Source: Lotus japonicus
Taxonomy: Eukaryota; Streptophyta; Magnoliopsida; Fabales; Fabaceae
Assembly (NCBI RefSeq): GCF_012489685.1
Contig: NC_080042.1
Span: 32,679,158-32,743,157 of the forward strand
DNA: 64,000 nt
Direction: 5' to 3'
Part shown: positions 2,180 through 63,616 of the stretch, one piece after another
Layout of the letters: every line of letters begins with the position of its first letter
How positions within the stretch are numbered: the stretch's first letter is position 1
Made by a program: the position numbers and the translations under genes
Notes under the pieces: generated by a model
Seen by the model: only the letters and a program-made list of their open reading frames with translations
Database searches by the model: none
What the model was told of the DNA's origin: nothing

Positions 2180-2223
2180 ATTTAGGGACAACATGTATGA
2201 TGTAATAAACATAGATTATTATG

Positions 2224-2229: not shown

Positions 2230-2365
2230 GAAAAAGATTTTGCAAACACAAGGTCATTTATATATATGCAATGATAAACTACTAGTAAGCAAAACATAGC
2301 AAGTAATTTCAAGAAAATAGAAATAAAGAGAAATTAAGTTAAGAAAAACGAAAGATATCCTAAAA

Positions 2366-21907: not shown

Positions 21908-21973
21908 TGCATCTCCTAGTTGATTTTTAGTTGGCCTTGGTTAAATTCTTTCCACCTTTGCCAAATTTGTGCT

Positions 21974-22355
21974 AAAAAGGGGGAGTAGTAGTGTGTTGTA
22001 GTTTGTTTTTTTTTTGAAGACTTGGTATTCTGGTTATGTTATGTAATAAGTATGCAGCTTTGTCAAGACAAGTTCAGGAGATCTTTTATGTTCAAGTGCT
22101 TCAAGCTAGCTTCTGTTCAAGTGTTACCAAGTGTGGTTGTTTTAGTTTGTACTGCTATGCATATGGGTTCTATATACTTTAGGCAGTGTTTATTTGGATG
22201 CATCTTTTGAGGGGGAGTTCCTCCGTGTTTTGGCTGTTGTGGATGCATTGGTTTGAGGGGGAGTATTTCTGCTGCAGACTCTGATGATTTTGAAATTTTT
22301 TTGCCCTCTCTGGTAGTGAAGTTGTTTTTAGACAAAATTTGACAAAGGGGGAGAT
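21974..22355 (+). other. Repeated polypurine tracts of B
   Basis: GGGGGAG-type purine runs lie at 21974-21985, 22209-22217, 22255-22263 and 22345-22355. The last abuts the 3' LTR and is the probable plus-strand primer. Several tracts before the 3' LTR are a known Sirevirus trait. Confidence 0.75.
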
Positions 22356-37998: not shown

Positions 37999-38430
37999 CG
38001 TGAAGTCGGTTGAAGGTTTTGGGTAGAAGGAGAAAGATGTACAGAGAGAGAGAGAGATCGTGGGGATAAGTTTTTGAAAAACTGAAGAGAGAGAATGTAA
38101 AACCGTAAGTGTAGGAGAACGTGTGTGTATAGTGGGTTTTGACAAATAACCGTTGTTGATCAAAAAGCAATTTAAAATCAACGGTTAGAAATTAAAGACA
38201 TGATAGTAGCAGTTAATCCACATATCACACGCAGGAGAGAAGCACATCAACACTCATTACGACAGACAGTCACAAGGGCACAAGGAACTATGCATCAGAG
38301 ATACTGACACACGTTTACTGTCTCAGCTTCAGAGTCAGCACCAATGGGTACATAAACTCTGATAGAGTTACCTTCTGGACTAGACATCTTCTGATAAAGA
38401 AGTATCATAGTCAGAGGTTCTGAACCATTT
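37999..38430 (-). other. D spacer between pol and envelope-like ORF
   Basis: No gene. On the minus strand a CT-rich leader precedes the envelope-like ATG, with a (CT)n run at 38041-38055. A TATA-like 'ctatacacaca' lies near 38127. C keeps both features at 58010-58060. Confidence 0.6.
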
Positions 38431-41400
38431 TCATGCTGGACAAAAGTCCATATTCAGATTTTTCAGAATGAAATTAAATCTATCCTCTGCTAAGGGCTTT
38501 GTAAAGATATCTGCCCATTGATGGTCAGTATCAACAAACTTCAGAAGAAGTACGCCCTTCTGTACATAATCTCTAATAAAGTGATACTTTACCTCAATGT
38601 GCTTTGCCCTTGAATGTAAGATAGGGTTCTTACTCAATGAAATTGCAGCAGTGTTATCACAATAGATTGGGATATTGCTCTCAAGGATTTGATAATCCTC
38701 CAGCTTATGTTTCATCCAGAGCATCTGAGTGCTACATATTGCTGCTGAGATATATTCTGCCTCTGTAGTAGATAGTGCAATGGTTGATTGCCTCTTGCTT
38801 GCCCATGAGACTAAGTTGCTTCCCAGAAATTGACAATTTCCAGAAGTGCTTTTTCTCTCTGTTCTATCTCCAGCATAATCAGCATCACAATAACCTGAAA
38901 GCTTATACTCTGATGTTTTCTTATACATCAAGCCAAGGTTAGTGGTACCTTTCAGATACCTTAGGATCCTCTTAACAGCAGTTAAGTGGGTTTCCCTTGG
39001 ATCTGATTGGAAACGAGCACATAAATGAACACTAAACAATATATCTGGCCTAGATGCAGTTAAGTATAGAAGTGATCCTATCATACCACGATAGAGCTTC
39101 TGACAAACTTTACCACTTGCATCTTCTTTCTCCAGAATGCATGTAGGATGCATTGGAGTCTTGGCAACTGTAGATTCCAACATATTGAACTTCTTCAGAA
39201 GTTCTTCAATGTACTTGCTCTGATGGATATATGTTCCTTCTGGTGTTTGATCAACTTGTATTTCCAGAAAGTACTTGAGTTCTCCCATCATACCCATCTC
39301 AAATTCAGCCTGCATCATCTCAAAAAATTCTTTGTATAGAGATTGATTAGCAGAACCAAATATAATATCATCAACATAAATTTGCACAATTAAGATATCA
39401 TCTTTGTAAGTTTTGCAAAAGAGAGTTGTATCTACTTTACCCCTTACAAACTCATTCTCCAGAAGGAATGAGTTGAGTCTCTCATTCCATGCTCTGGGAG
39501 CTTGCTTCAGACCATAGAGTGATTTCTTCAATTTGAAAACATGGTCTGGGTTCTTTTCATCCTCAAAACCTGGGGGTTGATGAACGTAGACTTCCTCTGA
39601 TATGTATCAATTTAGGAAGGCACTCTTAACATCCATCTGATGTAGAATTATGTTGTGATTTACTGAGAAGGATATCAACAGTCTGATTGCTTCTAGTCTT
39701 GCTACTGGAGCAAATGTTTCTGTGTAGTCTATTCCTTCCTGCTGGCTGTAGCCTTGAGCAACTAGCCTTGCCTTGTTTCTGACTACATCTCCTTTCTCAT
39801 TCAACTTGTTTCTGAACACCCATTTTGTTCCAATTACATGGACACTTTGAGGCTTCTTCACTAGGCTCCAAACATCATTCTTGGAAAATTGATTCAATTC
39901 TTCTTCCATAGCCAGAATCCAGTCCTTGTCCTGAAGAGCTTCATCAATTGACTTGGGTTCAATTAAGGACACCAATCCTTTCAGACTGAGCAGGGCCTCT
40001 TCAGAGGGTCTGAAGGCTGATCTGGTTCTGACTGGTTCGTCTTTGTTGCCCAGAATCAATTCCTTAGGATGAGCTGCAGTGATTTTGCTCTTCTTCTGAG
40101 GTTGAGAATCAGAGGGACCAGCTTCTTCTGGTTCATCTTCCTCTGACTCAGCTTCCTCTGGAGCTTTGCCTTTGTCAGAAACACTTATACTTAAATCTGC
40201 AAATTTCTCAACTAGCTTTGACTGGTCAGAGTCAAGCTTATCGTCAAATCTAACATGAATAGATTCTTCAATTGTTTTAGCATCAGTATTATAGAATCTG
40301 AAACCTTTAGATCTCTCAGAGTAACCAAGTAATAGACATTTAGAAGACTTAGCATCAAATTTATGCAATCTATCCTTAGTATTAAGAACATAAAAAACAC
40401 AACCAAAAGGATGAAAGTAAGAAATGTTGGGTTTTATATTCTTCCACAATTCATAGGGAGTCTTATTCAGAATTGGTCTCACAGAGATTCTGTTATGAAT
40501 GTAACACGCTGTGTTTACTGCCTCTGCCCAAAAGTACTTAGCCATGCCAGTTTCTTGGAGCATGGTTCTAGCCATCTCCTGAAGAGTTTTGTTCTTCCTC
40601 TCAACAACACCATTTTGTTGAGGAGTTCTGGGACAAGATAAATCATGTGCAATTCCATAGGAATCAAACAGACTCTCAAACTTGTCATTCTCAAACTCTC
40701 CACCGTGGTCACTTCTGACACGCACAATCCTACAAGCCTTCTCGTTTTGCACTTGGGCAATGAAGGTAGAGAACACAGCATGAGACTCATCCTTGCGGGT
40801 TAGAAATTTTACCCATGTCCAGCGGCTATAGTCGTCAACAATGACCATCCCATATCTCTTGCCACCTATAGACTCAGTTTTCACTGGTCCAAATAGGTCG
40901 ATATGCAGAAGTTCCAACGACCTTGAGGTTGAGACAACATTCTTTGCCTTGAAAGTGACTTTTGTGAATTTGCCTTTCTGACATGCTTCACAAAGAGCGT
41001 CTGAAGAGAACTTCAGAGTGGGTAAGCCCCTAACAAGGTTTAGCTTGCTCAGCTGAGAAATCTTTCTCATACTGGCATGCCCTAACCGTCTATGTCATAC
41101 CCATTGCTCTTCATTAACAGACAGAAGGCACTTCACATTCTGAGCCTCCAACTCAGATAATCTGATCTTATAAATGTTGTTCTTCCTCTTGTTATTAAAT
41201 AGAACAGAGCCATCGATCTGACTTACAGCCCGGCAGGACTTTTGATTAAAGATAACATCATAACCCTTGTCAGCTAATTGACTTATAGACAATAAGTTAT
41301 GAGTTAAGCCATCTACCAATAAAACATTGTCAATGCATGGACTACTATCTACACAAATAGTACCAGTACCAACAATTTTACCCTTTTCGTTGCCACCAAA

Positions 41401-41532
41401 GCCAACTTCGCCTCCAGGCTTAAGTTTTAGCTCTTCGAACATACGCCTTTCTCCCATCATGTGACGCGAGCATCCACAGTCCAGATACCATGATTGGTGT
41501 TTCAGTGGAGCTATCAAGGATATCTGCAACAT
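38431..41532 (-). pseudogene. D pol (protease, integrase, RT, RNase H)
   Basis: Pol lies in the +1 frame relative to gag and overlaps it by at least 113 nt (41532-41420). The protease motif reads WYLDCGCSRHM, with Cys where relatives have Ser in D-S-G. A TGA at 41095-41097 replaces Trp before the HRRLGHAS motif. The integrase core shows [17 protein letters not shown] and [12 protein letters not shown] has DVKSAFLN followed by a TGA at 39607-39609 (Gly in C). Further on come [10 protein letters not shown] and the intact active site YVDD (near 39375). RNase H shows GYCDADYAGD and ALSTTEAEYISAA. The ORF ends at 38431 after MDFCPA. Apart from two nonsense codons it is complete, so this is the best-kept pol of the C/D family here. 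Confidence 0.92.
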
Positions 41533-43324
41533 AGATAATCTTATCCTTAGGTACCCACTTTCTGGGTCCTCTCTTGTTAGTTACCCCAGAGGTTCTGATC
41601 ACCTTGGGTTTCTCAACATGGTAATGTAAAGGAATTTTTGCATGATATTTAGACATGGAGAAGGATCCCTTTTTAAGAGGAGGTTTAGCAACTTCAGCAG
41701 GTAAAGGATCAGGTAAAATGGTACCAGAGGGAACAAAGCATTGATACAAAGATTTAGCTTTAGGCATAGAAGGCTCATTTCTAATTGGTTTAGAATAGCC
41801 AATGCCATGCATTGCATTTCTGCTTACACCATAGATCATTGAAGCCATTAAGCTATCTACGCTTTTAGCCAGGAATCTTTGAAAAGATTTTTCATACTTA
41901 GATTCATGCTCACTATCAGAGGCATCGCAGGCAATAACTTCTTCTAACTTAGCGATTTGATTCTTAAGCACAGAGTTAGTATTCACTAAAGCATGGTTAT
42001 CATTTTTCAAATCAGAAATGATTTTCTCATGTTCAGAAGGAGTCTTAGAAACAGCAGATAAGTTCTTTTTCAGCTTCTTATGCTTAGACAACAAAGAGTT
42101 ATACTTATCCATGATATCAGACAAAGCATGTTTCAGTTCAGAGGTTGAGAAAGAAGCGAATACCTCATTTTCATCGTCTGAGTTAGGATCTCCTTCTGAT
42201 TCTGAGTCAGAGTCAACAGCATCCTTTGACTCTGATCCTTTGTCTTTGACAATGGCCAAGAGTCCTTGGAATTCTCCATCAGAGTCAACATCCTCTGACT
42301 CTGATTCATCAAAAGTCACCATCAGACTTTTCTTGGTCTTGAAGTGCTTCTTCGGACTCTTGTCCTTCTTCAATTTTGGACAGTCACTTTTGTAGTGTCC
42401 TGATTCTTTGCACTCAAAGCATGTGACTTCCTTAATTGAGGACTTCTTCTGACCTGAGGATTCAGACTTTCCTTTGGCCTTTCCAGAGCCTTTGTACTTG
42501 CTCTGCCTGTGCTTCCAGATACGGTTGAGTCTTTTAGAGATCAGAGTCAGCTCATCTTCATCAGAATCTTCTGATGCTTCTTCAGATTCTTCTGCTTCAG
42601 CTTGAAGAGCTTTTGACTTTTCTGCTTTAGCCTTCTCAGATTTGGATTATAAGGCTATTGACTTCTTCCTCAGATCTTGCATCTCTGAGCGCTTCAGCTC
42701 ATGGCACTTCAGTATGCTAATGAGTTCTTCTAAACTCATATGCTCAACATCTCTCGTAAGCTCTATTGAAGTCACCAAGGGCATCCAGCTTTCAAGAAGA
42801 CTTCTGATGACCCTTATGACATGATCTTTTGTTGTGTAGCTCTTGTTGAGAGGTCGTATTCCAGCTACAAGCAACTGAAATCTGGAGAACATTTCTTCAA
42901 TGGACTCGTTTGGCTCCATGATGAAGGATTCATACTTTTGGATCAAAGACAATGCCTTTGATTCTTTGACATTCTTGTTTCCTTCATGAGACATCTTCAG
43001 GGATTCAAAGATGCCTTTTGCATACTCACGATCTGTAATCTTCTGGTACTCTTCATAAGAGATAGCACTTAGAAGAATTGCTCTAGCTTTGTGATGTTGT
43101 GAGTAAAGCTTCTTTTGATCTGCAGTCATCTTTGACCTTGGGATCTTCTTGCCTTCTTCATCAACTGGACGCTCATAGCCATCCACAATAATATCCCAGA
43201 GATCTGCATCAAAACCCAGAAAGAAACTTTCAAGTCTATCTTTCCAATATTCGAACCTTTGACCGTCGAACATGGGAGGCTTTGCATTGTAACCATCTTT
43301 TTGCGTTTCACTGGTGGTAGCCAT
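41420..43324 (-). pseudogene. D gag
   Basis: From the ATG at 43324: copia gag core (residues about 10-215; DGQRFEYWKDRLESF near the start), then a TAA at 42647-42649 in place of Lys. The same frame continues with a Lys/Glu/Ser-rich linker, one zinc knuckle (CFECKESGHYKSDC, near 42400) and a long acidic and coiled-coil tail (about 42330-41950). It runs on to 41420, past the start of the protease frame. The tail beyond the knuckle is about 300 residues, longer than in most copia elements and typical of Sireviruses. The overlap with pol suggests that Pol is made by recoding. Confidence 0.9.
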
Positions 43325-43382
43325 TGTTTTTCACACCGGCCCGGATCACTGAACACTGTTAGGTGTGGTAATCAGAACTTGC

Positions 43383-43394
43383 GCTCTGATACTA
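43383..43394 (-). other. Primer-binding site of D
   Basis: On the minus strand it reads TAGTATCAGAGC; one base differs from the tRNA-Met site of C (TGGTATCAGAGC). Confidence 0.75.
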
Positions 43395-43396
43395 AT

Positions 43397-44366
43397 TGAA
43401 GGTATGAAAAACGGTAGAAAGGGGGGGGGGTTTGAATAACGTTTTCATAATAAAAGATTTTGAGAACAAAGTGCTTAAGATAAGAGATAGAAAAGCACAC
43501 AAGGATTTTTATCCTGGTTCACTTGATAAATCCCTCAAGCTAATCCAGTCCACCCGTTAAGGTGATTTCTTCCTTCTTAGAATGAAGGCAATCCACTAAT
43601 CAGGTAAATGTTACAACTGCACTTGAGACCTACAAGTGACTAACAATTACACTGACTTAGCTCACACTAAGATTCACTCTCTTAGTCTTCTCTAGGATCC
43701 GATCAAACTTGATCTCCTAAAGGTAACTAAACAACTGTTTAAGAAAGAATGTTTACAAAGAGTTTGCTTCTGAAAAGCTAATAGTAAACACAATGAATTC
43801 AGATGAAAGAATGCTTAGAAGGTTTTTGAATTTAGCTTGCGCGTGTGAGATTCTTCCAACCGCATCTTTCAATCTTCAACCTCTATTTATACTCCAAGGA
43901 TTAGGGTTTGAACGCTGCATAGAAATGCTACCGTTGGAGGGCAGTTCTGGAAATTCCAGCTTCTGCTATGGCTGAGAGTGTTAGGTAGGTCGTCAAGATA
44001 GTACATTTGCTTTTGTACTTGGATAGTGACTTGACCTTAAAACCTAGCAGACTTCTGATCACGGGAATGCTTCATGTTGGAACTTGTGAAGCCAGTTGAT
44101 CAGAGTCAGAGGGAAGCACAGATCCTCTGACCGTTGTATCTTCTGATTCTGAACTCAGAGGGAAGTACATGGTCTTTAGAGTCATCTTGCTTCTGGACAT
44201 CAGAGATTTCACTTTTCAGCTTCTGGATCTTCAGAGTCTTCTACACCATCGGAACATCTGAACCTTCAGAGTTTCTTGGTTGTCAGAACGTCTGGATCTT
44301 CAGAACTTCAAGTGACTGAGTCCATATCAGAGCTTTGTGTGGCTTCAGATCTTCTGAAGCGTTTCT
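43397..44366 (-). repeat. D 5' LTR, first part on the plus strand
   Basis: It starts tgaaggtatgaaaaacggta, has a G10 run near 43421, and follows the rc of the C LTR up to the G3 insertion. A TATA box (TATAAATA, minus, 43891-43884) is present. The last five bases (tttct) are the G3 target site. Confidence 0.92.
43884..43891 (-). promoter_or_regulatory. TATA box of the D 5' LTR
   Basis: TATAAATA on the minus strand after 'cttggag', at the same place as TATATAAA in the C LTRs (53941, 63098). Confidence 0.6.
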
Positions 44367-44754
44367 TGTAACACCCCGATTTCCTGGTGTCACTTTAGTA
44401 ACTAAAAATAAACTTTACGCGGAAAGCAGGTAATTTTTTTTTCGTTTGATTCCTTTAAATTAAAGCGATAGAAAATAAAGACATAACCCAGCAACTAAAC
44501 TAACCGATATACAACATATATAGACATGTACAGCCTCAGCTGCACTCCCACGTCACGCGCACTCGCAGTGACTCCAAAGTAGTGTGCCTGTAGGCAAATA
44601 TGTACAGAACCAGTAATGTAAGTAAAAGTCATACGTACAGTCATCCAATGAGAAAGTCGGCCCCAAAATGGCCTCAACACAAGACCCCTATAGTCCGACA
44701 GACTCTCTGTGATCCTCAGCAAGAGAACCACACAAAAAGCCATGCATCGGGAAC

Positions 44755-45033
44755 CTACCCTGTCCCAAAAGTAAGACGAATCAGAGCTCCACACAAAATA
44801 TGACGCCTGCCTAAACCTACCCCCCCATTACTGCTCACATAACCGAGTCCACAGCGAACTGAAGATGGCAAGTTGAAGCTCAGCTCCATGCGTCGTAGAA
44901 CTCCCTCCGTCAGACGTCCACGCTCGTCAGTACGGTCCTCCAACCCAAACCTGATCCCCCCCGAGGGAGAGACCATCGAAACCCAAATCGCCATCGACAT
45001 CTGGTAGCAGGCCGACCGCCCAAACACAAACAT
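44755..45033 (-). pseudogene. Decayed LTR ORF of G3
   Basis: It begins MFVFGRSACYQMS and keeps SPSGGIR and GVLRRMELSF of the G2 LTR ORF. It is shortened after RLTEGVLRRMELSFNLPSS by deletions and loses the Pro/Ala linker and acidic tail. The remaining 92-codon frame ends in unrelated residues. This shows that the LTR ORF is older than G2 and can be lost. Confidence 0.5.
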
Positions 45034-45241
45034 GAAACCAAAGCCAAGGCGCTAGGGTCAACTCACGGAATAGAGTAGATATACAAACAACATGTGATTG
45101 GGGAATATATATATGTTATTATATATATAAAAATATATTCCTAGCATGTTATCGGTTCTAACAATAATTCAGTAATGCAAACAGCACACAATTCCAGTCA
45201 GAGTGAATGTATGCGTGAAATGCAATCAATATGATCCGGAT

Positions 45242-45452
45242 AGTGAAGCATTCCCGTTCTTCACTAGTGAAGCATTCCCGTTCTTCACTCTTGATGAAGC
45301 ATTCCCGTTCTTCATCGAATGATGCATTGGTGAAGCATTCCCGTTCCTCACCAAATGATGCATGGGTGAAGCATTCCCGTTCTTCACCGAATGATGAAGC
45401 ATTCCCGTTCTTCATCAAATGATGCATTGGTGAAGCATTCCTGTTCCTCACC
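45242..45452 (-). repeat. Seven-hairpin array in the G3 LTR
   Basis: Seven units with loop CATTCCCGTT (once CATTCCTGTT). Stems are AGTGAAG/CTTCACT twice, GATGAAG/CTTCATC twice, GGTGAAG/CTTCACC once and GGTGAAG/CCTCACC twice. The last form pairs fully on the minus strand through G-U. The order of stems differs from G2. Confidence 0.88.
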
Positions 45453-45540
45453 AAATGATGCATGATGCAATATGGTTAGCCAAACATCGAATCGTCCTCA
45501 CAACACAAGCGTTTAGCTTAAAACCCAATTTCAAACCCAA

Positions 45541-45830
45541 GAGTTTAGTGTCGGTCAATACAACACAACTCCAACAACAAGAGTACTAGAGTAAGAGTTT
45601 AGTGTCGGTCAATACAACACAACTCCAACAACAAGAGTACTAGAATAAGAGTTTAGTGTCGGTCAATACAACACAACTCTAACAACAAGAGTACTAGAAT
45701 AAGAGTTTAGTGTCGGTCAATACAACACAACTCCAACAACAAGAGTACTAGAGTAAGAGTTTAGTGTCGGTCAATACAACACAACTCCAACAACAAGAGT
45801 ACTAGAATAAGAGTTTAGTGTCGGTCAAGT
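45541..45830 (-). repeat. 54-bp tandem repeat in the G3 LTR
   Basis: Five complete 54-bp units start at 45541, 45595, 45649, 45703 and 45757. A partial sixth (45811) ends at the deletion junction. Each unit carries the 19-base motif GTGTCGGTCAATACAACAC and an 'agagtactaga' spacer. Confidence 0.93.
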
Positions 45831-46619
45831 TTCGGCGAAAATCTCCTCTCCCTTCCCTCTCCTCAATCCGCGGCCCCAAATGGAAGTTATGAGAGATATT
45901 TTGATTTTTTTACTATTTATAGGCAGGTGAAATCGCGGGAAAATGAAAATTTCGCGATTCTGATTTTTGCAGCACGTTCATCGGTGAATTCTAAGAGAGA
46001 TTCTGGCGACAGAATTCCAGAACTCAAAACAAATCTCTAACATTTGGGAAAAACGATCTCCAAAATCCCAAAAGCGGTGTAAGTTAATCTGTCCCGAAAA
46101 ACTACTTTTTGCTGTGAAGGTCAGACGACAAAACTTCGTTCTGAAGAAAGATTGGAAACATCGAAAAAAATCTGGCAACGCGGACGGAAACTTTGTTAAA
46201 AGCTCCGAATAGAAAAAGTCTTCATTCACTGATTGAATCTAGGGTTTCGAAGCAAAGAAATTAGCGTCGTCGGACTTCCGAAAAGTGAATACTATCGTGC
46301 GTACAGTCCAGGGTTCCGAAATGAAACACTGGTCGAAGGAAAAATAAAGAGAACCTTTAAATTTTCCAAGGATTTGAAATCTCACTTAATACGTTGCTCT
46401 AAAAGCGAAATTAGCCTATTCTGGACGCTCTCGCCATATGGCAGGTGTGCAGACGACTCGCACTAATTCCTAAAACAACTATGAAACATTCCTCAAGCAA
46501 TTCCTGAACTTTCTTCTTCATTAAACTTTCTCAAACAGCGAACCCCTGTCACGCTTACACTGATTCTACACGTGAGTCGGAAAATAAACTTGTTCTGTAA
46601 ATCCAGGTCTTACATTTCT

Positions 46620-46834
46620 ACTGTTCATAGTGAACATAGATGTTGCGAAAGCGTTGCTTGGGTCACTCTTTATACACAGTGCTTCTGATTTGTGTGAGAT
46701 TGAATTGAGGTCAGAGCCTGTAAATAGCACACTCAGAAAAACACGTTAGAGTACCATAATTGGTCATACTAAAATGTTAACTTGTAATCATCAAAACATA
46801 GAGTTGTACTACTCGATCAAAACTTGATCTTACA
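46620..46834 (-). repeat. D 5' LTR, second part
   Basis: It continues the D LTR after the second tttct (46615-46619) and ends gatcttaca. The D TSD acaat follows at 46835-46839. Its rc matches the start of the C LTR (tgtaagatcaagttttgatc). Confidence 0.92.
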
Positions 46835-46839
46835 ACAAT

Positions 46840-53252: not shown

Positions 53253-54459
53253 TGTAAGATCAAGTTTTGATCTAGTAGTACAACTCTACGTTTTGATGAT
53301 TACAAGTTAACCTTTTGATATGAACAATTGTGGTACTCTAACGTGTTTTTCTGAGTGTGCTATTTACAGGCTCTGACCTCAACTCAATCTCACACAAATC
53401 AGAAGCACTGTGTATAAAGAGCAACCCAAGCAACGCTTTCGCATTCACCATGTTCAGTATGAACAGTGGAAAAGCTTCAGAAGTTCTGAAGTTATACAAA
53501 CTCTGATGTGGACTCAGTCACTAGAAGCTCTGAAGATCCAGAAAGTCTGATAACCAAGAAACACTGAAGGCTCAGATATTCTGATGGTGTAGAAGACTCT
53601 GAAGATCCAGAAGCTGAATAGTGGAAACTCTGATGTCCAGAAGCAAGATACTCTGAAGACCATGTTCTTCCCTCTGAGTTCAGAATCAGAAGAAACAATG
53701 GTCAGAGGATCTGGGCTTTCCCTCTGACTCTGATCAACCGGCTTCACAAGTTCCTATATGAAGCATCCCCTGATCAGAAGTCTCCTAGGTTTAAAGGTCA
53801 AGTCGCTATCCAAGTACAAAAGCAACTGTACCTTCCTGACGACCTACCTAACAGTCTCAGACACAGCAGAAGCTGGATTTTCCAGAACTGCCCTCCAACG
53901 GTAGCATTTCCCATGCAACGCTCAACCCTAATCCTTGGAGTATATAAAGAGGCTGAAGACTGAAAGAAGCGGCTAGAAGCATTCACATACGCACAAGACA
54001 AACTTAAATTCTTCTAAGCTTTCTTTCATCTGAAATTCATTGAGTTTACTATTAGCTTGTTAGAAGCAAATCTCTTGTAAACAATTCTTTGATAAACAGT
54101 TTGTTTAGTTCCTTTAGGAGATCAAGGTTGATCGGATCCTAGAGAAGACTAAGAGAGTGAATCTTAGTGTGAGCTAAGTCAGTGTAATTGTTAGTCACTT
54201 GTAGGTTTCAAGTGCAGTTGTAACTCTTACCTGATTAGTGGATTGCCTTCATTCTAAGAAGGAAGAAATCACCTTAACGGGTGGACTGGAGTAGCTTGAG
54301 TGATTTATCAAGTGAACCAGGATAAAATCCTTGTGTGCTTTTCTATCTCTTATCTTTAGCACTTAAGTTCTCGAAAGATTGGTCAAAATCTTTAAGGTGG
54401 AAGTTTTATACTGAAAACGTTATTCAAACCCCCCCTTTCTACCGTTTTTCATACCTTCA
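53253..54459 (+). repeat. C 5' LTR
   Basis: It starts tgtaagatcaagttttgatc and ends ttcataccttca. TATA box TATATAAA lies at 53941-53948. A C-rich tract (54429-54435) lies just before the end. Confidence 0.95.
53941..53948 (+). promoter_or_regulatory. TATA box of the C 5' LTR
   Basis: TATATAAA after 'ccttggag', about 690 bases into the LTR. It is the likely promoter of C RNA; copy at 63098-63105. Confidence 0.7.
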
Positions 54460-54461
54460 AT

Positions 54462-54473
54462 TGGTATCAGAGC
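54462..54473 (+). other. Primer-binding site of C (initiator tRNA-Met)
   Basis: TGGTATCAGAGC, two bases after the LTR. Confidence 0.9.
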
Positions 54474-54531
54474 GCAAGTTCTGATTACCACACCTAACAG
54501 TGTTCAGTGATCCGGGCCGGTGTGAAAAACA

Positions 54532-56440
54532 ATGGCTGCCACCACCAGTGAAACTCAAAGAGATGGTTACAATGCAAAGCCTCCTATGTTCGACGGTCAA
54601 AGGTTCGAATATTGGAAAGATAGACTGGAAAGTTTCTTTCTGGGTTTCGATGCAGATCTCTGGGATATTATTGTGGATGGCTACGAGCGTCCAGTTGATG
54701 TAGATGGCAAGAAGATCCCAAGGTCAGAGATGACTGCAGATCAAAAGAAGCTGTACTCACAACATCACAAAGCAAGAGCAATTCTTCTAAGTGCTATTTC
54801 CTATGAAGAGTACCAGAAGATTACAGATCGTGAGTTTGCAAAAGGCATTTTCGAGTCTCTGAAGATGTCTCATGAAGGAAACAAGAAAGTCAAAGAATCA
54901 AAGGCATTGTCTTTGATCCAAAAGTATGAATCCTTCATCATGGAGCCAAATGAGTCCATTGAAGAAATGTTCTCCAGATTTCAGTTGCTTGTAGCTGGCA
55001 TACGACCTCTCAACAAGAGCTACACAACAAAAGATCATGTCATAAGGGTCATCAGGTGTCTTCCTGAAAGTTGGATGCCTTTGGTGACTTCAATAGAGCT
55101 CACGAGAGATGTTGAGAATATGAGTTTAGAAGAACTCATCAGCATTTTGAAATGCCATGAGCTGAAGCGCTCAGAGATGCAAGATCTGAGGAAAAAGTCC
55201 ATAGCCTTGAAATCCAAATCTGAAAAGGCTAAGGTTGAGAAGTCAAAAGCTCTTCAAGCTGAAGAAGAGGAATCTGAAGAAGCATCAGAAGATTCTGATG
55301 AAGATGAGCTGACTCTGATCTCCAAGAGACTCAATCGCATCTGGAAGCACAGGCAGAGCAAATACAAAGGCTCTGGAAAGGCAAGAGGAAAGTCTGAATC
55401 CTCAGGTCAGAAGAAGTCCTCACTTAAGGAAGTCACATGCTTTGAGTGCAAAGAATCAGGGCACTACAAAAGTGACTGTCCAAATTGAAGAAGGACAAGA
55501 AGCCAAAGAAGCACTTCAAGACAAAGAAGAGTCTGATGGTGACATTTGATGAATCAGAGTCAGAGGATGTTGACTCTGATGGTGAAGTCCAAGGACTCAT
55601 GGCTATTGTCAAAGACAAGGAAGCAGAGTCAAAGGAAGCTGTTGACTCTGACTCAGAATCAGAAGGAATCCTAACTCAGACGATGAAAATGAGGTATTCG
55701 CTTCTTTCTCTACCTCTGAACTGAAACATGCATTGTCTGATATTATGGATAAGTATAACTCCTTATTGTCTAAGCATAAGAAGCTGAAAAAGAACTTATC
55801 TGCTGTCTCTAAGACTCCTTCTGAACATGAGAAAATTATTTCTGATTTGAAAAATGATAATCATGCCTTGATCAATTCTAACTCTGTGCTTAAGAACCAG
55901 ATTGCTAAGTTAGAAGAAATTGTTGCCTGTGATGCCTCTGATTGTAGAAATGAATCTAAGTATGAAAAGTCTTTTCAAAGATTCCTAGCTAAAAGCGTGG
56001 ATAGAAGCTTAATGGCTTCAATGATCTATGGCGTAAGCAGAAATAGAATGCATGGCATTGGCTATTCTAAACCAATTAGAAATGAGCCCTCTGTGTCTAA
56101 AGCTAAATCCTTGTATGAATGCTTTGTTCCCTCTGGTACCATATTGCCTGATCCTGTACCTGCTAAAGTTGCTAAAAACCCTCTTAAAAAGGGATCTTTC
56201 TCTATGACTAAATATCATGCAAATATTCCTTTAAAATATCATGTTGAGACACCCAAGGTGATTAGAACCTCTGGGGTAACTAACAAGAGAGGACCCAGAA
56301 AGTGGGTACCTAAGGACAAGATTATCTATGTTGCAGATATCCTTGATAGCTCCACTGAAACACCAATCATGGTATCTGGACAGTGGATGCTCGCGTCACA
56401 TGACGGGAGAAAGGCGTATGTTCCGAGAGCTGAAACTTAA
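54532..56440 (+). pseudogene. C gag
   Basis: From the ATG at 54532 (MAATTSETQRDG) an unbroken 318-codon frame covers the gag core, the linker and the zinc knuckle CFECKESGHYKSDC. It stops after CPN at 55486-55488, because one A is missing from a run compared with D. A second one-base loss occurs near 55670 (SEGILTQ against SEGDPNSDD in D). The third frame (55733-56440) carries the coiled-coil tail up to the overlap with protease. The first product, a Gag with knuckle, could in principle still be made. The tail is separate. Confidence 0.9.
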
Positions 56441-57706
56441 GCCTGGAGGCTATCAGACTGTTGATCTCTTTCTCAGTAAATCACAACATAGTTCTACATC
56501 AGATGGACGTGAAGAGTGCCTTCCTAAATGGTTATATCTCAGAGGAAGTCTATGTTCATCAACCCCCAGGTTTTGAAGATGAGAAGAAACCAGACCATGT
56601 GTTCAAATTGAAGAAATCACTCTACGGTCTGAAGCAAGCTCCCAGAGCGTGGTATGAGAGACTTAGCTCATTCCTTCTGGAGAATGAGTTTGTAAGGGGT
56701 AAAGTAGATACAACTCTTTTTGCAAGACTTATAAAGATGATATCTTAATTGTGCAAATTTATGTTGATGATATTATATTTGGTTCTGCTAATCAATCTCT
56801 ATGCAAAGAATTTTCTGAGATGATGCAGGCTGAATTTGAGATGAGTATGATGGGAGAATTAAAGTACTTTCTGGGAATACAAGTTGATCAAACACCAGAA
56901 GGAACATATATCCATCAGAGCAAGTACACTAAAGAACTTCTGAAGAAGTTCAATATGCTGGAATCTACAGTGGCCAAGACTCCAATGCATCCTACATGCA
57001 TTCTGGAGAAAGAAGATAAAAGTGGTAAAGTATGTCAGAAGCTCTATCGTGGCATGATAGGTTCACTTCTATACTTAACTGCATCTAGGCCAGACATACT
57101 ATTTAGTGTTCATTTATGTGCTCGTTTCCAATCAGATCCAAGGGAAACCCACTTAACTGCTGTTAAGAGGATCCTAAGGTATCTGAAAGGCACCACTAAC
57201 CTTGGCTTGATGTATAAGAAAACATCAGAGTATAAGCTTTCAGGTTACTGTGATGCTGATTATGCTGGAGATAGAACAGAGAGAAAAAGTACTTCTGGAA
57301 ATTGTCAATTTCTGGGAAGCAATCTAGTCTCATGGGCAAGCAAGAGGCAATCAACCATTGCACTATCAACTGCAGAGGCAGAATATATCTCAGCAGCAAT
57401 ATGCAGCACTCAGATGCTCTGGATGAAACATCAGCTGGAGGATTATCAGATCCTTGAGAGCAATATCCCAATCTATTGTGATAACACTGCTGCAATCTCA
57501 TTGAGTAAGAATCCTTTCTTGCATTCAAGGGCAAAGCACATTGAGGTAAAGTATCACTTTATTAGAGATTATGTACAGAAGGGCGTACTTCTTCTGAAGT
57601 TTGTTGATACTGACCATCAATGGGCAATATCTTTACAAAGCCCTTAGCAGAGGATAGATTTAATTTTATTCTGAAAAATCTAAACATGGACTTTTGTCCA
57701 GAGTGA
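56328..57706 (+). pseudogene. C pol remnant (protease start joined to late RT and RNase H)
   Basis: The +1 frame starts before 56328 and holds protease motif WYLDSGCSRHMTG. At about 56450, after LKLKPGG, the sequence jumps to RT codons just before [13 protein letters not shown] has about 1.7 kb in between, so protease end, GAG-pre-integrase, integrase and early RT are gone. The junction also shifts the frame. Late RT has [10 protein letters not shown] and YVDD (near 56760), with a one-base loss near 56720. RNase H shows GYCDADYAGD and [14 protein letters not shown] further one-base loss near 57625 breaks the last residues (WAISLQ against WADIFT in D). It cannot supply integrase or a full RT. 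Confidence 0.93.
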
Positions 57707-58147
57707 AGATGGATCAGAACCTCTGACTATGATACTTCTTGATCAGAAGATGTCTAGTCCAGAAGGTAACTCAATCAGAGTGTGTGTACCCACTGGTACT
57801 GACTCTGAAGCTGAGACAGCAACACGTGTGTCAGTATTTCTGATGCATAGTTCTTTGTGCCCGTGTGACAGTCTGTTATGATTGCGTGTAGATGTGCTTC
57901 TCTCCTGTGTGTGATTTGTGTATTTACTGTTACTATCTATCTTTAATTTTCAACCGTTGATCTTAAAGTGCTTTTTGAATCAACAACGGTTATTTGTTAA
58001 AACCCACTATACACACACGATCTCTTTCACTTCCGGTTTTTACTCTCTCTCTCTGCTTTTCAAAACCGCTTATCCTCGATTTCTCTCTCGATCTCTCTTC
58101 ATCTTTCAACCTTCATCTTCTACCTCAAACCTTCAACCGCTTCAAAA
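57707..58147 (+). other. C spacer between pol and envelope-like ORF
   Basis: No gene. The last 130 bases are a CT-rich leader with a (CT)n run near 58041-58053, preceded by TATA-like 'actatacacacac' near 58008. D conserves this, so it may be the leader of a separate transcript. Confidence 0.5.
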
Positions 58148-61016
58148 ATGGTGAGTCAAACCAGAAGAACTACTGCAGATGCAACCCAGTTCCCTCACAT
58201 GGTAGTTGGTCTAGCAACGGGTCAAAGGGACCCTGAGAATCCGACACCAGATCAAGGTCAAGCTCAAGAGCAGATTCTTCCAATTGCAGAACGGGGCTGT
58301 GTCGTTCACTGCGTATTTGCTCCTGAGGAACTTCAAGTCCTGGCAGAATGGAGATTCGACCTCGACAACCTGGCTGCAAATGGGTATGATCTTCGTCCTG
58401 AAGTCCAAGTTCAAGGTTGGGGAAATTACTTCAACAGACTTCGAGGACCGGTGTATGATAAACTGATCAAGGAATTCTGGAAACACGCCGACTGCGATGA
58501 TACTCAGGTGGTATCTCACATTCTTGGAAGAAAGATCATCATCACAGAGAAGTCATTCGTGAACTTGCTGGGTGCAGACACTGCTTTTGGGTATCGTTTC
58601 CAACTCACGGAATCGAAGCTGAAACCCAGCACCAAAGATACAATCAACCAGGCCCTGTACACAAATTACAAACCGGGCAAGACGACTTACAGGGTGATGG
58701 ACCTTCATCCCAAGCTCAGGATCTGGCACAAAATCTTGCTCCACTGCATAAACCAGAGACCAAAGGGCAGTTCCCCAGACTACATCAACTTCAACCAGAA
58801 GGTGATGTTGTTCTTCATCCAAGACCAGAAGAAGATCTGCCTTCCCTACTTCCTGTTCTCCTACTTGAAGGAATGTATCCGGAAGTCTCGTACCACTGCC
58901 TCCATCAAGTCAGCGATCAAGTATATTCCCTTCGGGAGACTCTTGTCTGATCTCTTCATTGAGAGTGGCCTCGTCCAAGATCTGATAAATGCTGGATGCA
59001 CAGAGGATCTGACCACCATTGTCAGTGATGTCTTCACGGCAAACTCTCTCAAGAAGATGGGCCTAATCAAGAAGAAGATTGCTCCTGCTCATGAAGACAC
59101 ATCTTCTGAGATCAGAAGTAGAAGGATGCCTCTGAATGACTACCCTCTGTGGACTCAGGCAGACAATCCTGACGCCATTAGGCGCTATGTTGAAGACCTA
59201 AGGGCTCAAGGATTCGAGATTGATCTCGATGACTTCTTCAGCAGACTGCCGCCAGCTCCAGAGTTTCCTTCTCCTCCCAAGAAGAAAGTTCAGAGGAAGA
59301 TGGTCCTAGAAGAATCCTCTGAGGAATCAGATGTCCCTCTGATCAAAAAGAAGAAGGCTGGTCAACTCAAGAGAAAGCAAGATGAAACCAGCAAGCCTGA
59401 TGATGGTGATGATGGTGATAATGAGGATGGTCCTCCTAAGAAGAAGAAGAAGCAAGTCAGAATCGTGGTGAAGCCTACTCGGGTGGAACCAGCTGCTGAA
59501 GTGGTCAGAAGGACTGAACCTCCTGCCAGAGTGACAAGATCATCAGCACATTCAAGTAAGTTTGCGATTGCTTCTGATGATGGTTTGAATTTATTTGATG
59601 CACTCCCCATTTCTGCCATGCTCAAACACTCTTCAAATCCCCTCACTCCTATTCCTGAATCCCAACCAGCTGCACAAACCACCTCTCCACCACATTCCCC
59701 AAGGTCTTCATTTTTTCAACCTTCCCCTACTGAAGCACCTCTCTGGAATTTGCTCCAGAACCAACCCTCTAGGTCAGAAGAACCAACCTCTCCCATCACC
59801 ATTCCATACAACCCACTTGAACAACCAGAGCCTACCCACACACAACCTGGACCCAGAACCTCTGATCACTCTGTCCCAAGAGCATCAGAACGTCTGGCTC
59901 CCAGAACTACTGATACAGACTCTTCCACAGCCTATACACCTGTATCCTTCCCAACCCATGTTGCTGACTCTTCTCCCTCCAATAACTCTGAATCCATTAG
60001 AAAATTCATGGAGGTCAGAAAAGAAAAGGTGTCTACCTTAGAAGAGTATTATCTCACTTGTCCAAGCCCTAGGAGATATCCTGGCCCTAGACCTGAACGT
60101 CTAGTTGACCCCGATGAACCTATCTTGGCCAATCCTTTACATGAGGCAGACCCTTTGGCTCAACAAGCTCACCCTGCCCCTGACCACAAGAGCCTATTCA
60201 ACCAGAACCTGAACCAGAACAATCTGTGTCTAACCAATCCTCGGTTAGATCCCCTCATCCTCTGGTTGAAACTTCAGAACCTCACCTTGGAACCTCTGAA
60301 CCCAATGCTCAAATGTTTAACATTGGTTCTCCACAAGGTCCTCTGAAGCCCACAGCAGCAATCACCCAGCCTCTCCTGAAACCAACCTCTCCATAATTCC
60401 TTATACTCCCCTCCGACCCACATCTCTCTCTGAGTGCATCAATATTTTCTATCATGAAGCCTCCTTGAGGCTACGCAATGTGCACGGTCAGACTGACCTC
60501 AGTGAGAATGCTGAACGTGTGGCTGATGAGTGGAACACTCTGGGCACTTGGCTAGTGGCTCAAGTTCCAATTATGATGGAGCTCCTGCATGCAGAGGGAA
60601 GTCAGAGGGTTGAGGCTGCCAAGCAAAGGTTTGCTCGAAGGGTGGTTCTTCATGAACAAGAACAGAGGAATAAGCTTCTTGAAGCTATTGAAGAAGCCAA
60701 GAGAAAGAAAGCTCAAGCAGAAGAAGCTGCACGTCTAGCAGCAGCTCAAGCTGAACAAGCCAGACTAGAGGCAGAACGACTTGAGGCTGAGGCTGAAGCC
60801 CTTAGATGCCAAGCACTTGCACCAGTAGTGTTTACTTCTGCTGCTTCTGCTTCCATTCCAGATCCTCAAGCTGCTCAGAATGTTCCTTCCGGTTCTACTC
60901 AGTCAAGCTCATCCAGACTCGACATCATGGAACAGCGTCTTGACATTCATGAATCCATGCTAATTGAAATGAAGCACATGATGATGGAACTTCTGCGTCG
61001 AACTGATAAACCTTAG
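58148..61016 (+). pseudogene. Envelope-like second ORF of C
   Basis: It starts MVSQTRRTTAD at 58148 and runs 732 codons in one frame to 60346. Comparison with D shows one-base shifts near 60185 and 60335. The last part continues in another frame to the stop at 61016. Residues about 60-290 form the conserved plant transposon-protein-like domain (YFNRLRGPVYDKLIKEF; PKGSSPDYINF). Then come basic KKKKKQVRIV (near 59445), a long Pro/Ser/Thr-rich region and a C-terminal Ala/Glu/Arg coiled coil (60650-60810). No signal peptide or membrane helix. The first 680 residues are intact; the coiled coil is lost from the main frame. Confidence 0.88.
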
Positions 61017-61167
61017 TTTTTAGGATCTCTTCGTTTTTCTTTTTCTTTAACGTTGTTTTATTTTTGTTAAACTCTGTTTCCTTTTATTTATTTATTCTAA
61101 TTTGTTCGTTTGTGATTATCTATGCATATCTATATATAATTGTGTCACATATGTTTGCAAAAATCTT

Positions 61168-61173
61168 TTTATT
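61168..61173 (-). terminator. Poly(A) signal of the antisense gene in C
   Basis: AATAAA on the minus strand, 44 bases after the stop of the antisense ORF. D has it at 45 bases. Confidence 0.55.
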
Positions 61174-61216
61174 CATAATATCTTTATGTTTACATCATAC
61201 ATTCTTTCCCTAAAGT

Positions 61217-61609
61217 CTAGAATGGCGGATCTCTCCTCATTCTTCTGCACTCCTGGCGCTGCTCTGACCTATCCTTCTCCAGACGCTCCAGTACATGCTG
61301 GATGTTGTTGAACCTGTTCTTTAGCTCATCCCTCTCCAGAATCTCTTTTGCAGTCTTGAGCTTCTCTTCCAAACTCTCTTTTTCTTTCAGCAGCTTGAGT
61401 TCAAGCCGGCTGAGTTCTTGCACCTCCTCAACGAAGGCAAGAAATTCCCTCAGGTCTCTCTTCAACTCTGGACGCAGGTCCTCTTCCAGCAGTGTCCGTG
61501 TTAGCTCCGAGATGGTCGTTGTACCCTCTGGATGCCTGATGTTAAGGGACAAGTCCTCCTCGAAGGCCTTCTTCCTCAGCTCTTCTAGTGCTACGATGTA
61601 TGATGCCAT
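61217..61609 (-). CDS. Antisense 130-aa coiled-coil protein of element C
   Basis: This intact 130-codon ORF is on the strand opposite to the C genes, 200 bases beyond the end of the envelope-like ORF and convergent with it. It aligns without gaps to D 1787-2179 (about 93 of 130 identical). Conserved blocks include ALEEL, NIRHP, EFLAFVEE, ERDEL and QRQECRRMR. From residue about 45 on it is a charged Leu-heptad helix. A TATA box stands 52 bases before the ATG and AATAAA 44 bases after the stop. It is intact while the sense genes of C carry at least six frameshifts. No known domain. It might bind its own kind or the coiled coil of the envelope-like protein; this is speculation. Confidence 0.72.
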   Translation of the reverse strand: MASYIVALEELRKKAFEEDLSLNIRHPEGTTTISELTRTLLEEDLRPELKRDLREFLAFVEEVQELSRLELKLLKEKESLEEKLKTAKEILERDELKNRFNNIQHVLERLEKDRSEQRQECRRMRRDPPF

Positions 61610-61661
61610 TTTTTTTACTGAAAATTGTTCGAGGTGTGAAGCTTACCTTTCTCTCCAACGC

Positions 61662-61669
61662 TTTATATA
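61662..61669 (-). promoter_or_regulatory. TATA box of the antisense gene in C
   Basis: TATATAAA on the minus strand, 52 bases before the ATG at 61609. Upstream lies the block 'cctcgagaaactgtaggagc' shared with D. Confidence 0.65.
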
Positions 61670-61856
61670 TGCTTCACTTTCTCTCTGAAAGTTAATGCTC
61701 CTACAGTTTCTCGAGGTTAAGTTCTTGGTAACTGACCCTTCTCTTTACTTCCTTGACCGGTGGTAAACGTTCTTCTCTTGCATTAACTCTTCTATTTATT
61801 TCGCCTAACTCTGTTTCTTGCATCGTTTTCCTTTTCTTTAAACTTAGACCTTCTCT

Positions 61857-62409
61857 AAGGGGGAGTACCTTGTACTTCAAGCTAAGTTTTTCACACTCCA
61901 AGCTTTTTGCTTATGACAAAAAGGGGGAGTAAACCCAGTTTTTGATGTGTAAGATGTGTTAGTGTGATTTATTTTTCTTTTGGAGAATTTAAGAGTTCCA
62001 CCTTCATGACCATAGATGTGTCACTGGGCAAATACAAGGAATACATTTCACTTCTTCTGAAGTGATTCTAGTTGACTCTGATACCCAAGACTCTGATACC
62101 TTGTCCGTGACTCTGATTACTTATGCGCTCTGATTACTCGATTTTCATCTATGTCATAAGTTTTTCACTCTGAACTCTTATATCATTTAGCTCAGAATCT
62201 AGACTTTACTAACGTTTTCATCAAGTATTAGATTCAGGGGGAGCTAAGCTCAGAATCAAGCAGTGACTTAAATTCAGAATGAGCAAGATAAACTATTCAC
62301 ATCAGGATAAGTCTTATTCTATATCTCTAAACTCTGAGTGAATTCAGTTTAATGTTTAAGAATTGTTCATCAAAAATCTTAGTTTTGTCATCATCAAAAA
62401 GGGGGAGAT
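61857..62409 (+). other. Repeated polypurine tracts of C
   Basis: Purine runs of the AAGGGGGAG type lie at 61857-61865, 61918-61929, 62233-62242 and 62396-62409. The last abuts the 3' LTR. No gene lies between 61670 and 62410 (a 66-codon minus ORF at 61701-61901 is not conserved in D). Confidence 0.8.
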
Positions 62410-63616
62410 TGTAAGATCAAGTTTTGATCTAGTAGTACAACTCTATGTTTTGATGATTACAAGTTAACCTTTTGATATGAACAATTGTGGTACTCTAACG
62501 TGTTTTTCTGAGTGTGCTATTTACAGGCTCTGACCTCAACTCAATCTCACACAAATCAGAAGCACTGTGTATAAAGAGCAACCCAAGCAACGCTTTCGCA
62601 TTCACCATGTTCAGTATGAACAGTGGAAAAGCTTCAGAAGTTCTGAAGTTATACAAACTCTGATGTGGACTCAGACACTAGAAGCTCTGAAGATCCAGAA
62701 AGTCTGATAACCAAGAAACACTGAAGGCTCAGATATTCTGATGGTGTAGAAGACTCTGAAGATCCAGAAGCTGAATAGTGGAAACTCTGATGTCCAGAAG
62801 CAAGATACTCTGAAGACCATGTTCTTCCCTCTGAGTTCAGAATCAGAAGAAACAATGGTCAGAGGATCTGGGCTTTCCCTCTGACTCTGATCAACCGGCT
62901 TCACAAGTTCCTATATGAAGCATCCCCTGATCAGAAGTCTCCTAGGTTTAAAGGTCAAGTCGCTATCCAAGTACAAAAGCAACTGTACCTTCCTGACGAC
63001 CTACCTAACAGTCTCAGACACAGCAGAAGCTGGATTTTCCAGAACTGCCCTCCAACGGTAGCATTTCCCATGCAACGCTCAACCCTAATCCTTGGAGTAT
63101 ATAAAGAGGCTGAAGACTGAAAGAAGCGGCTAGAAGCATTCACATACGCACAAGACAAACTTAAATTCTTCTAAGCTTTCTTTCATCTGAAATTCATTGA
63201 GTTTACTATTAGCTTGTTAGAAGCAAATCTCTTGTAAACAATTCTTTGATAAACAGTTTGTTTAGTTCCTTTAGGAGATCAAGGTTGATCGGATCCTAGA
63301 GAAGACTAAGAGAGTGAATCTTAGTGTGAGCTAAGTCAGTGTAATTGTTAGTCACTTGTAGGTTTCAAGTGCAGTTGTAACTCTTACCTGATTAGTGGAT
63401 TGCTTTCATTCTAAGAAGGAAGAAATCACCTTAACGGGTGGACTGGAGTAGCTTGAGTGATTTATCAAGTGAACCAGGATAAAATCCTTGTGTGCTTTTC
63501 TATCTCTTATCTTTAGCACTTAAGTTCTCGAAAGATTGGTCAAAATCTTTAAGGTGGAAGTTTTATACTGAAAACGTTATTCAAACCCCCCCTTTCTACC
63601 GTTTTTCATACCTTCA
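62410..63616 (+). repeat. C 3' LTR
   Basis: 1,207 bp, three differences from the 5' LTR. TATA box at 63098-63105. The TSD cagac follows at 63617-63621. Confidence 0.95.

What the first reader, a model, noticed from the sequence alone, without database searches (positions are those of the whole stretch)
61168..61669. Complete antisense gene between the envelope-like ORF and 3' LTR of a Sirevirus, conserved in two elements
Seen: C (61217-61609, minus) and D (1787-2179, plus) carry gap-free 130-codon ORFs, about 72% identical, on the strand opposite to gag, pol and the envelope-like ORF. Both have TATATAA(A/G) 51-52 bases before the ATG and AATAAA 44-45 bases after the stop. In the first 70 codons I count about 24 silent and 17 replacement codon differences, below neutral expectation. 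Both ORFs are intact in elements whose sense genes are broken. Known: antisense ORFs occur in Tat-lineage gypsy elements (e.g. Grande, RIRE2) and in some retroviruses; I know of no such gene in Sireviruses. Inference: a regulatory or structural coiled-coil protein made from the integrated copy.
Basis: partly seen in the sequence, partly recalled or inferred. Interest (0 to 1): 0.9.

Follow-up and report, generated by a model that had tools for sequence, protein, structure and literature searches.

The report
Backward gene hidden in plant Sirevirus
A family of plant jumping genes carries a small protein gene written backwards near one end, in a stretch usually treated as non-coding, and selection has kept its protein sequence across very different copies, although what the protein does is unknown.

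Summary
At 61217-61609 (-) and 1787-2179 (+) lie 130-codon ORFs opposite in direction to gag, pol and the envelope-like ORF of two Sirevirus-type copia elements; the proteins are 72% identical. C against D gives dN/dS 0.15; the envelope-like ORF of the same two elements gives 0.17. The source genome is held and shows over 4,000 first-look candidates. Codon models give omega 0.27 (48 ORFs) and 0.22 (25 ORFs, identity down to 49%); omega = 1 fits far worse. In two overlapping samples of young copies, picked without reference to the ORF, it is intact in 32 of 40 and 15 of 20. A TATA box about 60 bp upstream and a TGTA motif downstream are conservation islands. I read this as a real antisense protein-coding gene. 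Prediction suggests a helical hairpin; no family or fold match passed threshold. Antisense accessory ORFs are known in Ty3/gypsy elements; my searches found none described for Sireviruses, and the main survey considered only ORFs of 250 codons or more. Transcription and function are untested.

The parts
61217..61609 (-). Antisense ORF of element C, 130 codons, ATG to TAG, 15.7 kDa protein
61662..61669 (-). TATATAAA, TATA box of the antisense gene
   Evidence: TATATAA[AG] within 75 bp upstream in 68 of 70 copies, 1.5% by chance in shuffles; C-type/D-type identity 0.98 in this 10-bp bin against 0.55 and 0.75 in the two neighbouring bins
61690..61749 (-). Conserved upstream block (about -140 to -81), possible promoter elements
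   Evidence: identity 0.80-0.98 in 10-bp bins between C-type and D-type copies; role inferred
61190..61201 (-). TGTATGATGTAA, a TGTA-type upstream poly(A) element
   Evidence: TGTA[TC]GATGTA in 66 of 70 copies; identity 0.99 in its bin; role from general knowledge of plant poly(A) signals
61168..61173 (-). AATAAA, poly(A)-type signal
   Evidence: 69 of 70 copies within 60 nt of the stop, but 36% expected by chance per shuffled piece and its bins are not specially conserved (0.63-0.71)
1787..2179 (+). Antisense ORF of the second element (D), 130 codons
1728..1735 (+). TATA box of the D antisense gene
2224..2229 (+). AATAAA of the D antisense gene (a second one at 2204-2209)
53253..63616 (+). 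Element C: copia insertion with TG...CA LTRs 53253-54459 and 62410-63616 (99.7% identical) and a 5-bp target duplication CAGAC at 53248-53252 and 63617-63621
54462..54473 (+). Primer binding site TGGTATCAGAGC
54532..55488 (+). gag (Retrotran_gag_2, zinc knuckle)
56751..57647 (+). Piece of pol with the end of the reverse transcriptase domain (RVT_2)
58148..60346 (+). Envelope-like ORF of C (PF20167, 41.8 bits against a cut-off of 45)
60465..61016 (+). C-terminal part of the envelope-like ORF of C, in another frame in this copy
61857..61865 (+). Internal polypurine tract AAGGGGGAG
61918..61929 (+). Internal polypurine tract AAAAAGGGGGAG
62396..62408 (+). Terminal polypurine tract beside the 3' LTR
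1012..2770 (-). 3' half of the second element: envelope-like C-terminus 2366-2770, linker with the antisense gene, remnant of the 3' LTR
35526..46835 (-). 5' half of the second element (LTR pieces, gag, pol, envelope-like 35526-37804), itself interrupted; split from 1012-2770 by the nested insertion 2771-35525 with duplication GCCTC
21908..22355 (.). Control: linker of another copia family in the window with an envelope-like ORF (20150-21907) and no antisense ORF of 100 aa or more

Best explanation
The stretch between the envelope-like ORF and the 3' LTR of this Sirevirus-type family contains a self-contained antisense gene. Shown from sequence: a conserved TATA box, a short leader, a 129-130 codon ORF kept at protein level, a stop, and conserved poly(A)-type sequence ending before the sense envelope-like ORF. 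Inferred: host RNA polymerase II transcribes it from the integrated DNA copy, independently of the 5' LTR and convergent with it, so damaged or split copies such as D could also make it. The product is a 15.7 kDa acidic helical protein with a conserved N-terminal part (MASY...LEELRRKAF...RHP), a predicted helical hairpin (residues 47-86 and 90-126) and a conserved ECRRMR.DPPF tail. The most likely role, about 40% taken alone, is a trans-acting accessory regulator of the element's own cycle that works by protein-protein contact. Analogues by position are Grande gene23 and HTLV HBZ. A structural partner of Gag or of the envelope-like protein is the main alternative. The confidence given is for the antisense protein gene itself, not for the regulatory role.
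For: dN/dS C vs D 0.150, dS 1.02; envelope-like ORF of the same two elements 0.168 (C-terminal part) and 0.169 (main part). Omega 0.268 on 48 ORFs, lnL -4080 against -4243, -4217 and -4208 with omega 1 at kappa 2.0, 2.8 and 4.0; omega 0.224 on 25 ORFs including 11 deeply diverged ones, -3763 against -3940. Pairwise dN/dS falls from 0.43 in young pairs to 0.15 in old pairs. The ORF frame is open in 66 of 70 copies; of the other five frames four are open in none and one in 29. TATA 68 of 70, TGTA motif 66 of 70, G after the ATG 69 of 70. Intact in 32 of 40 copies found by upstream DNA and 15 of 20 found by the envelope-like ORF. Two deeply diverged copies keep the layout with envelope-like ORF, polypurine tracts and LTR. 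Predictions.
Against: No RNA evidence was available. The lists were ranked by protein similarity, which favours intact and conserved copies, and most of the 70 ORFs come from them. Copies with a frameshift or a partial match were dropped before the 70 were made (3 of 79 matching loci), so openness and lack of indels in that set are partly by construction. The C/D pair and the two ORF-blind samples avoid the ranking bias, but those samples are young copies, share nine copies, and hold two pairs of near neighbours. AATAAA alone is weak. No homologue of known function supports a regulatory role. Prediction confidence is modest (mean pLDDT 81 and 76, pTM 0.46 and 0.58), and the two predictions differ in whether the long helix breaks. 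The protein is acidic (pI 4.7-5.5). One other copia family in the window lacks the gene. No evidence from another species was obtained.
Confidence: 0.78

Rival explanations
1. The protein is a structural or assembly partner: its helical hairpin packs with Gag or with the C-terminus of the envelope-like protein, and it is carried in particles.
For: The envelope-like C-terminus looks like coiled coil by eye (sequence printed) and has nearly the same dN/dS and dS as the antisense ORF. The prediction is a helical pair, typical of protein-protein contacts.
Against: A particle protein would be expected on the sense RNA, together with Gag. No complex was modelled. The two proteins are not homologous by profile comparison.
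Confidence: 0.25
2. What matters is the antisense RNA (dsRNA, convergent transcription), not the protein.
For: Promoter-like and poly(A)-like sequence convergent with the sense genes; antisense retroelement transcripts can feed silencing (PMC7264820; PMC12786077, passages).
Against: RNA function does not predict dN/dS of 0.15-0.27, third-position excess or a protein recognisable at 49% identity.
Confidence: 0.05
3. The ORF is a by-product of selection on an overlapping sense-strand feature, such as a sense ORF.
For: In C a sense-strand frame is also open (61302-61688), and one complementary frame has a low ratio by codon coupling (0.245).
Against: Only one complementary frame is ever open over the whole ORF, in 29 of 70 copies, against 66 of 70 for the antisense frame. 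The antisense frame has the lowest dN/dS of the six.
Confidence: 0.03
4. It is a host gene picked up recently by one element.
For: No homologue outside such sequences was found, so a fast-changing host source cannot be excluded.
Against: It occurs in very diverged subfamilies, and two of these that were read in full context have it at the same place, so any capture is old.
Confidence: 0.05

Closest known systems
Antisense accessory ORFs of Ty3/gypsy Tat/Retand elements (Grande gene23, RIRE2, Retand, PvRetro13 and 14 other bean families)
   Same: Antisense ORF between pol and the 3' LTR, kept in most copies; Grande gene23 has its own promoter (PMC7264820, parts 1 and 2 of 3 read; PMC11963269, abstract and passages; PMC4093653, passages).
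   Different: Those are Ty3/gypsy; this is Ty1/copia. The bean ORFs are 211-939 aa and Retand ones often carry TRP28. Neither window ORF matches PF04195 up to E = 1, and profile comparison with two ORFs of one PF04195 locus of this genome gives probability 0.1.
Antisense genes of deltaretroviruses (HTLV-1 HBZ, HTLV-2 APH-2)
   Same: Antisense gene near the 3' end of the integrated copy (PMC11963269 passages, PMC7264820); that HBZ has a leucine zipper is recalled.
   Different: HTLV's antisense promoter lies in the 3' LTR (PMC7264820); here the TATA box lies in the linker. No homology claimed.
Sirevirus sense extra ORF (envelope-like, eORF-3'F)
   Same: Same elements; found in 74% of SIRE elements in the survey PMC6317226 (passages).
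   Different: Sense strand, unrelated by profile comparison. That survey counted only extra ORFs of at least 250 codons, so a 130-codon gene would have been below its cut-off (my inference). Passages read name no antisense ORF for SIRE.
Lotus2 Sirevirus (Bousios et al. 2010, PMC2829016)
   Same: 12.12 kb, LTR 1.22 kb, four polypurine tracts after the envelope gene (passages); element C has a 1.21-kb LTR and at least three tracts.
   Different: The paper's title and passages treat these regions as non-coding; 'antisense' does not occur in its text. That C belongs to the Lotus2 family is my inference from lengths and was not tested; nor did any call name the window's species.

Membership tests
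Sirevirus (SIRE lineage, Ty1/copia) | copia-type gag and reverse transcriptase | tested here: met
   Retrotran_gag_2 1e-19, zinc knuckle 3e-5, RVT_2 6e-16 over the last third of the profile
Sirevirus (SIRE lineage, Ty1/copia) | several polypurine tracts of one type before the 3' LTR | tested here: met
   61857, 61918 and 62396; feature from PMC2829016 passages
Sirevirus (SIRE lineage, Ty1/copia) | sense envelope-like ORF between pol and 3' LTR (frequent, not universal) | tested here: met
   58148-60346 and 60465-61016; PF20167 41.8 bits, just under the cut-off of 45
Sirevirus (SIRE lineage, Ty1/copia) | reverse transcriptase groups with SIRE in a tree | not tested
   no tree with reference elements was built
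Antisense aORF of plant LTR retrotransposons (by position) | antisense ORF between pol and 3' LTR kept in most copies | tested here: met
   32 of 40 and 15 of 20 copies intact in ORF-blind samples; omega 0.22-0.27
Antisense aORF of plant LTR retrotransposons (by position) | transcribed from its own antisense promoter | not testable with these tools
   only a conserved TATA box and poly(A)-type sequence seen
TRP28 / Retand antisense protein family | PF04195 domain | tested here: not met
   no PF04195 match up to E = 1; profile comparison probability 0.1

The most novel reading that the evidence does not exclude
Sireviruses are complex retroelements with a genuine antisense accessory gene, evolved independently of those in Ty3/gypsy elements and deltaretroviruses. 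The long 'non-coding' linkers of other Sireviruses may hide similar genes, missed because surveys looked only for long ORFs. The gene would let every integrated copy, even a split one, make a protein that controls the family.
Probability: 0.35. Interest if true: 0.82.

Novelty: new variant of a known kind. Interest (0 to 1): 0.64.

Why it matters
Sireviruses make up about 21% of the maize genome (abstract of PMC3599292), and their linker region has been read as non-coding. A further gene under purifying selection there changes the picture of their life cycle. It also gives a second plant lineage, apart from Ty3/gypsy, in which an antisense accessory gene sits at a similar place and is kept by selection, so the open question of what such genes are for could be tested in another system. 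Annotation of Sireviruses should look on both strands and below 250 codons.

Tried and rejected
Known domains and folds. Pfam: best matches PF20975 (E 0.0097, 15.5 bits, cut-off 26.7) for C and PF25557 (E 0.057, 14.1 bits, cut-off 22) for D, taken as chance coil matches. PDB sequences: best E 0.36. Foldseek: best E 0.8 (PDB), 0.2 (viral) and 0.38 (PDB, second model). and the first row used coordinates for C shifted by one codon (first Met missing, stop included); the later searches did not.

Other species. Seven database proteins were found, all on contigs of at most 1102 bases. I first took the diverged ones as coming from other plants and dropped that: P0005 and P0006 are 96% identical to copies of this genome and P0001 94%, and two of the seven are filed under Bradyrhizobium sp. 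TM233, most likely plant contamination. P0002 (86%), P0003 (82%), P0004 (90%) and P0007 (65%) have no closer match among the copies fetched; a search of the genome with P0007 did not complete. Scans of viral contigs and genome contigs found no relative.

I first described the pieces at 1012-2770 and 35526-46835 as two elements; one search shows that they are halves of one.

Homology to a TRP28-locus protein and to the envelope-like C-terminus: not supported. A splice-donor-like AGGTAAGC in the leader: not pursued.

Rows dropped. Of 88 loci, 9 had no match (8 did not cover the ORF; L020 lost it), 3 had partial matches (L024, L025, L032), and 6 were repeats of a locus or identical, leaving 70; 50 of these had long flanks. 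Of 15 deeply diverged copies fetched (L112-L126) a strict rule (ATGG start, MA, 110-140 codons) accepted 11, one of them with a changed C-terminus (L121). L112 has a stop; L116, L123 and L124 failed the rule and were not looked at further.

Full report
What is there. Element C is an insertion at 53253-63616 with TG...CA LTRs of 1207 bp (99.7% identical over the blast match), a 5-bp target duplication CAGAC, a TGGTATCAGAGC primer site, copia gag and reverse transcriptase domains, an envelope-like ORF and at least three polypurine tracts of one type. These fit a Sirevirus; I did not build a reverse transcriptase tree. Its pol frame is in pieces and its envelope-like frame is split. The second copy of the ORF, D, lies in the 3' half (1012-2770) of another element of the family on the opposite strand. 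The 5' half of that element is at 35526-46835; a nested insertion of about 32.8 kb at 2771-35525, flanked by the 5-bp repeat GCCTC, lies between. Its 3' LTR is mostly missing.

The ORF. Between the envelope-like ORF and the 3' LTR each element carries a 130-codon ORF on the other strand, 77.4% identical in DNA and 72% in protein. Of 89 differences 49 are at third codon positions. NG86 gives dS 1.02, dN 0.154, ratio 0.150. The other frames give 0.84-2.06 except one complementary frame at 0.245. Random placement of the same substitutions never gave as few amino-acid changes in 5000 trials. The envelope-like ORF between the same two elements gives 0.168 (C-terminal part, dS 0.79) and 0.169 (main part, dS 0.98). 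The antisense protein is thus held about as tightly as the sense protein beside it.

The family in the genome. The window lies in a 554-Mb assembly that is held. I recall that this size and six large contigs fit Lotus japonicus, but no call named the species. The C protein gave 4329 first-look candidates; of the 150 best, which alone were scored, 146 have no internal stop by my count. The D protein gave 4298 candidates, 138 of 150 stop-free. P0005, a diverged relative, gave 4256 candidates, 125 of 150 stop-free at 64-96% identity to it. These lists are ranked by similarity to an intact protein and so favour intact copies.

Two samples avoid that. Of the 40 copies scored for a 254-bp stretch upstream of the gene 32 have an intact ORF: 11 of 12 in hand, 7 of 7 read only from the table, 13 of 20 fetched, and 1 of 1 fetched. 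Of the first 20 copies after C itself in the list of 103 found with the envelope-like protein, 15 are intact; L017 has a stop, L020 lost the region, L024 and L025 have a deletion inside it, and L032 is frameshifted. Nine copies are in both samples, and both are of young copies, so intactness alone is weak evidence. The codon evidence carries the weight.

Selection. Among 70 distinct full-length ORFs dN/dS falls from 0.43 in pairs with pS below 0.05 to 0.15 in pairs above 0.5, as expected if dead copies drift and the active lineage is constrained. A codon model on 48 ORFs gives omega 0.268, log-likelihood -4080 against -4243, -4217 and -4208 with omega 1 at three kappas. With 11 deeply diverged ORFs added to 14 others, identity down to 49%, omega is 0.224, -3763 against -3940. 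The ORF frame is open in 66 of 70 copies; the one complementary frame that is ever open is so in 29. Frameshifted copies had been dropped before, so the lack of indels in this set is partly by construction.

Signals around it. A TATA box sits 57-66 bp before the ATG in nearly all copies; TATATAA[AG] is present in 68 of 70 against 1.5% in shuffled pieces. C-type to D-type identity is 0.98 in that bin against 0.55 and 0.75 beside it, and a block at -140 to -81 is also conserved. Downstream TGTATGATGTAA is conserved at 0.99 against 0.72 and 0.48 beside it. AATAAA is present in 69 of 70, but 36% would be expected by chance in this AT-rich stretch and its bins are not specially conserved. With general knowledge of plant genes this reads as promoter, short leader, ORF and poly(A) region. 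Transcription was not tested. Two diverged copies read in context (L112, with a stop in its ORF, and L113) keep the layout: envelope-like C-terminus at 52-53% identity, polypurine tracts and LTR.

The protein. 15.4-15.7 kDa and acidic. With a shallow alignment the prediction is one long helix 47-126; with the diverged relatives added the helix breaks at 87-89, giving a hairpin. Diverged copies have a proline near there and the heptad register shifts there in a simple count. No Pfam family passes its cut-off and nothing significant appears among solved structures or viral models.

A control. A second copia family in the window (LTRs 3156-4032 and 22356-23232, envelope-like ORF 20150-21907) has a 448-bp linker with no antisense ORF of 100 aa or more. 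That is one element, not a survey.

What is known. Antisense ORFs between pol and the 3' LTR are established in Ty3/gypsy elements: PMC7264820 (parts 1 and 2 of 3 read), PMC4093653 (passages, 15 bean families), PMC11963269 (abstract and passages). PMC6317226 (passages) reports the sense extra ORF in 74% of SIRE elements and counted only extra ORFs of at least 250 codons. PMC2829016 (passages) speaks of non-coding regions with conserved motifs. PMC3414828, PMC3599292 and PMC9073684 do not contain the word antisense in their main text (find); PMC5009743, PMC6696364 and PMC12786077 (passages) describe no antisense gene in Sireviruses. My searches gave no paper that does, going by listings and these passages, in an open-access library that lacks most subscription journals. 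Not every listed paper was opened, and supplements were not available.

How it probably works. The gene can be transcribed from DNA only, so its product would come from integrated copies whether or not the 5' LTR is active. I think a trans-acting regulator of the element's own expression or integration most likely, at about 40%, and a structural partner of Gag or the envelope-like protein next, at about 25%. Both are inference. That it is a protein gene and not only an RNA rests on the codon evidence, which is strong.

Verdict. A well-supported antisense accessory gene in a lineage where I found none described, analogous to but not detectably homologous with those of Ty3/gypsy elements. Transcription, function and spread beyond this genome are open.

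Noticed in passing
window 3156-23232: A second copia family with an envelope-like ORF (PF20167, 79 bits) and 99% identical LTRs has a short linker without the antisense gene: a natural control.
   Followed up: partly
window 61620-61660 (-): The leader of the antisense gene has a widely conserved AGGTAAGC or GGGTAAGC, like a splice donor.
   Followed up: no
window 61832-62085 and 1302-1555: This stretch upstream of the gene, with polypurine tracts, is 95% identical between C and D although the ORFs are 77% identical, suggesting recombination between subfamilies or strong constraint.
   Followed up: partly
window 2771-35525: A nested insertion of about 32.8 kb with 5-bp repeat GCCTC, itself holding several other elements, splits the second Sirevirus copy.
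   Followed up: partly
P0001 and P0004: Two proteins filed as Bradyrhizobium sp. TM233 match this plant retrotransposon protein and lie on contigs of 561 and 483 bases, most likely contamination of a bacterial draft genome.
   Followed up: partly
window 7466-7756 and around 14783: Arrays of an 18-bp repeat inside two related element copies about 7.3 kb apart.
   Followed up: no
G000: PF04195 (TRP28) has 2860 first-look candidates in this genome, and all 150 scored pass its cut-off, so TRP28-type sequences coexist with this copia-type gene; their orientation was not checked.
   Followed up: partly
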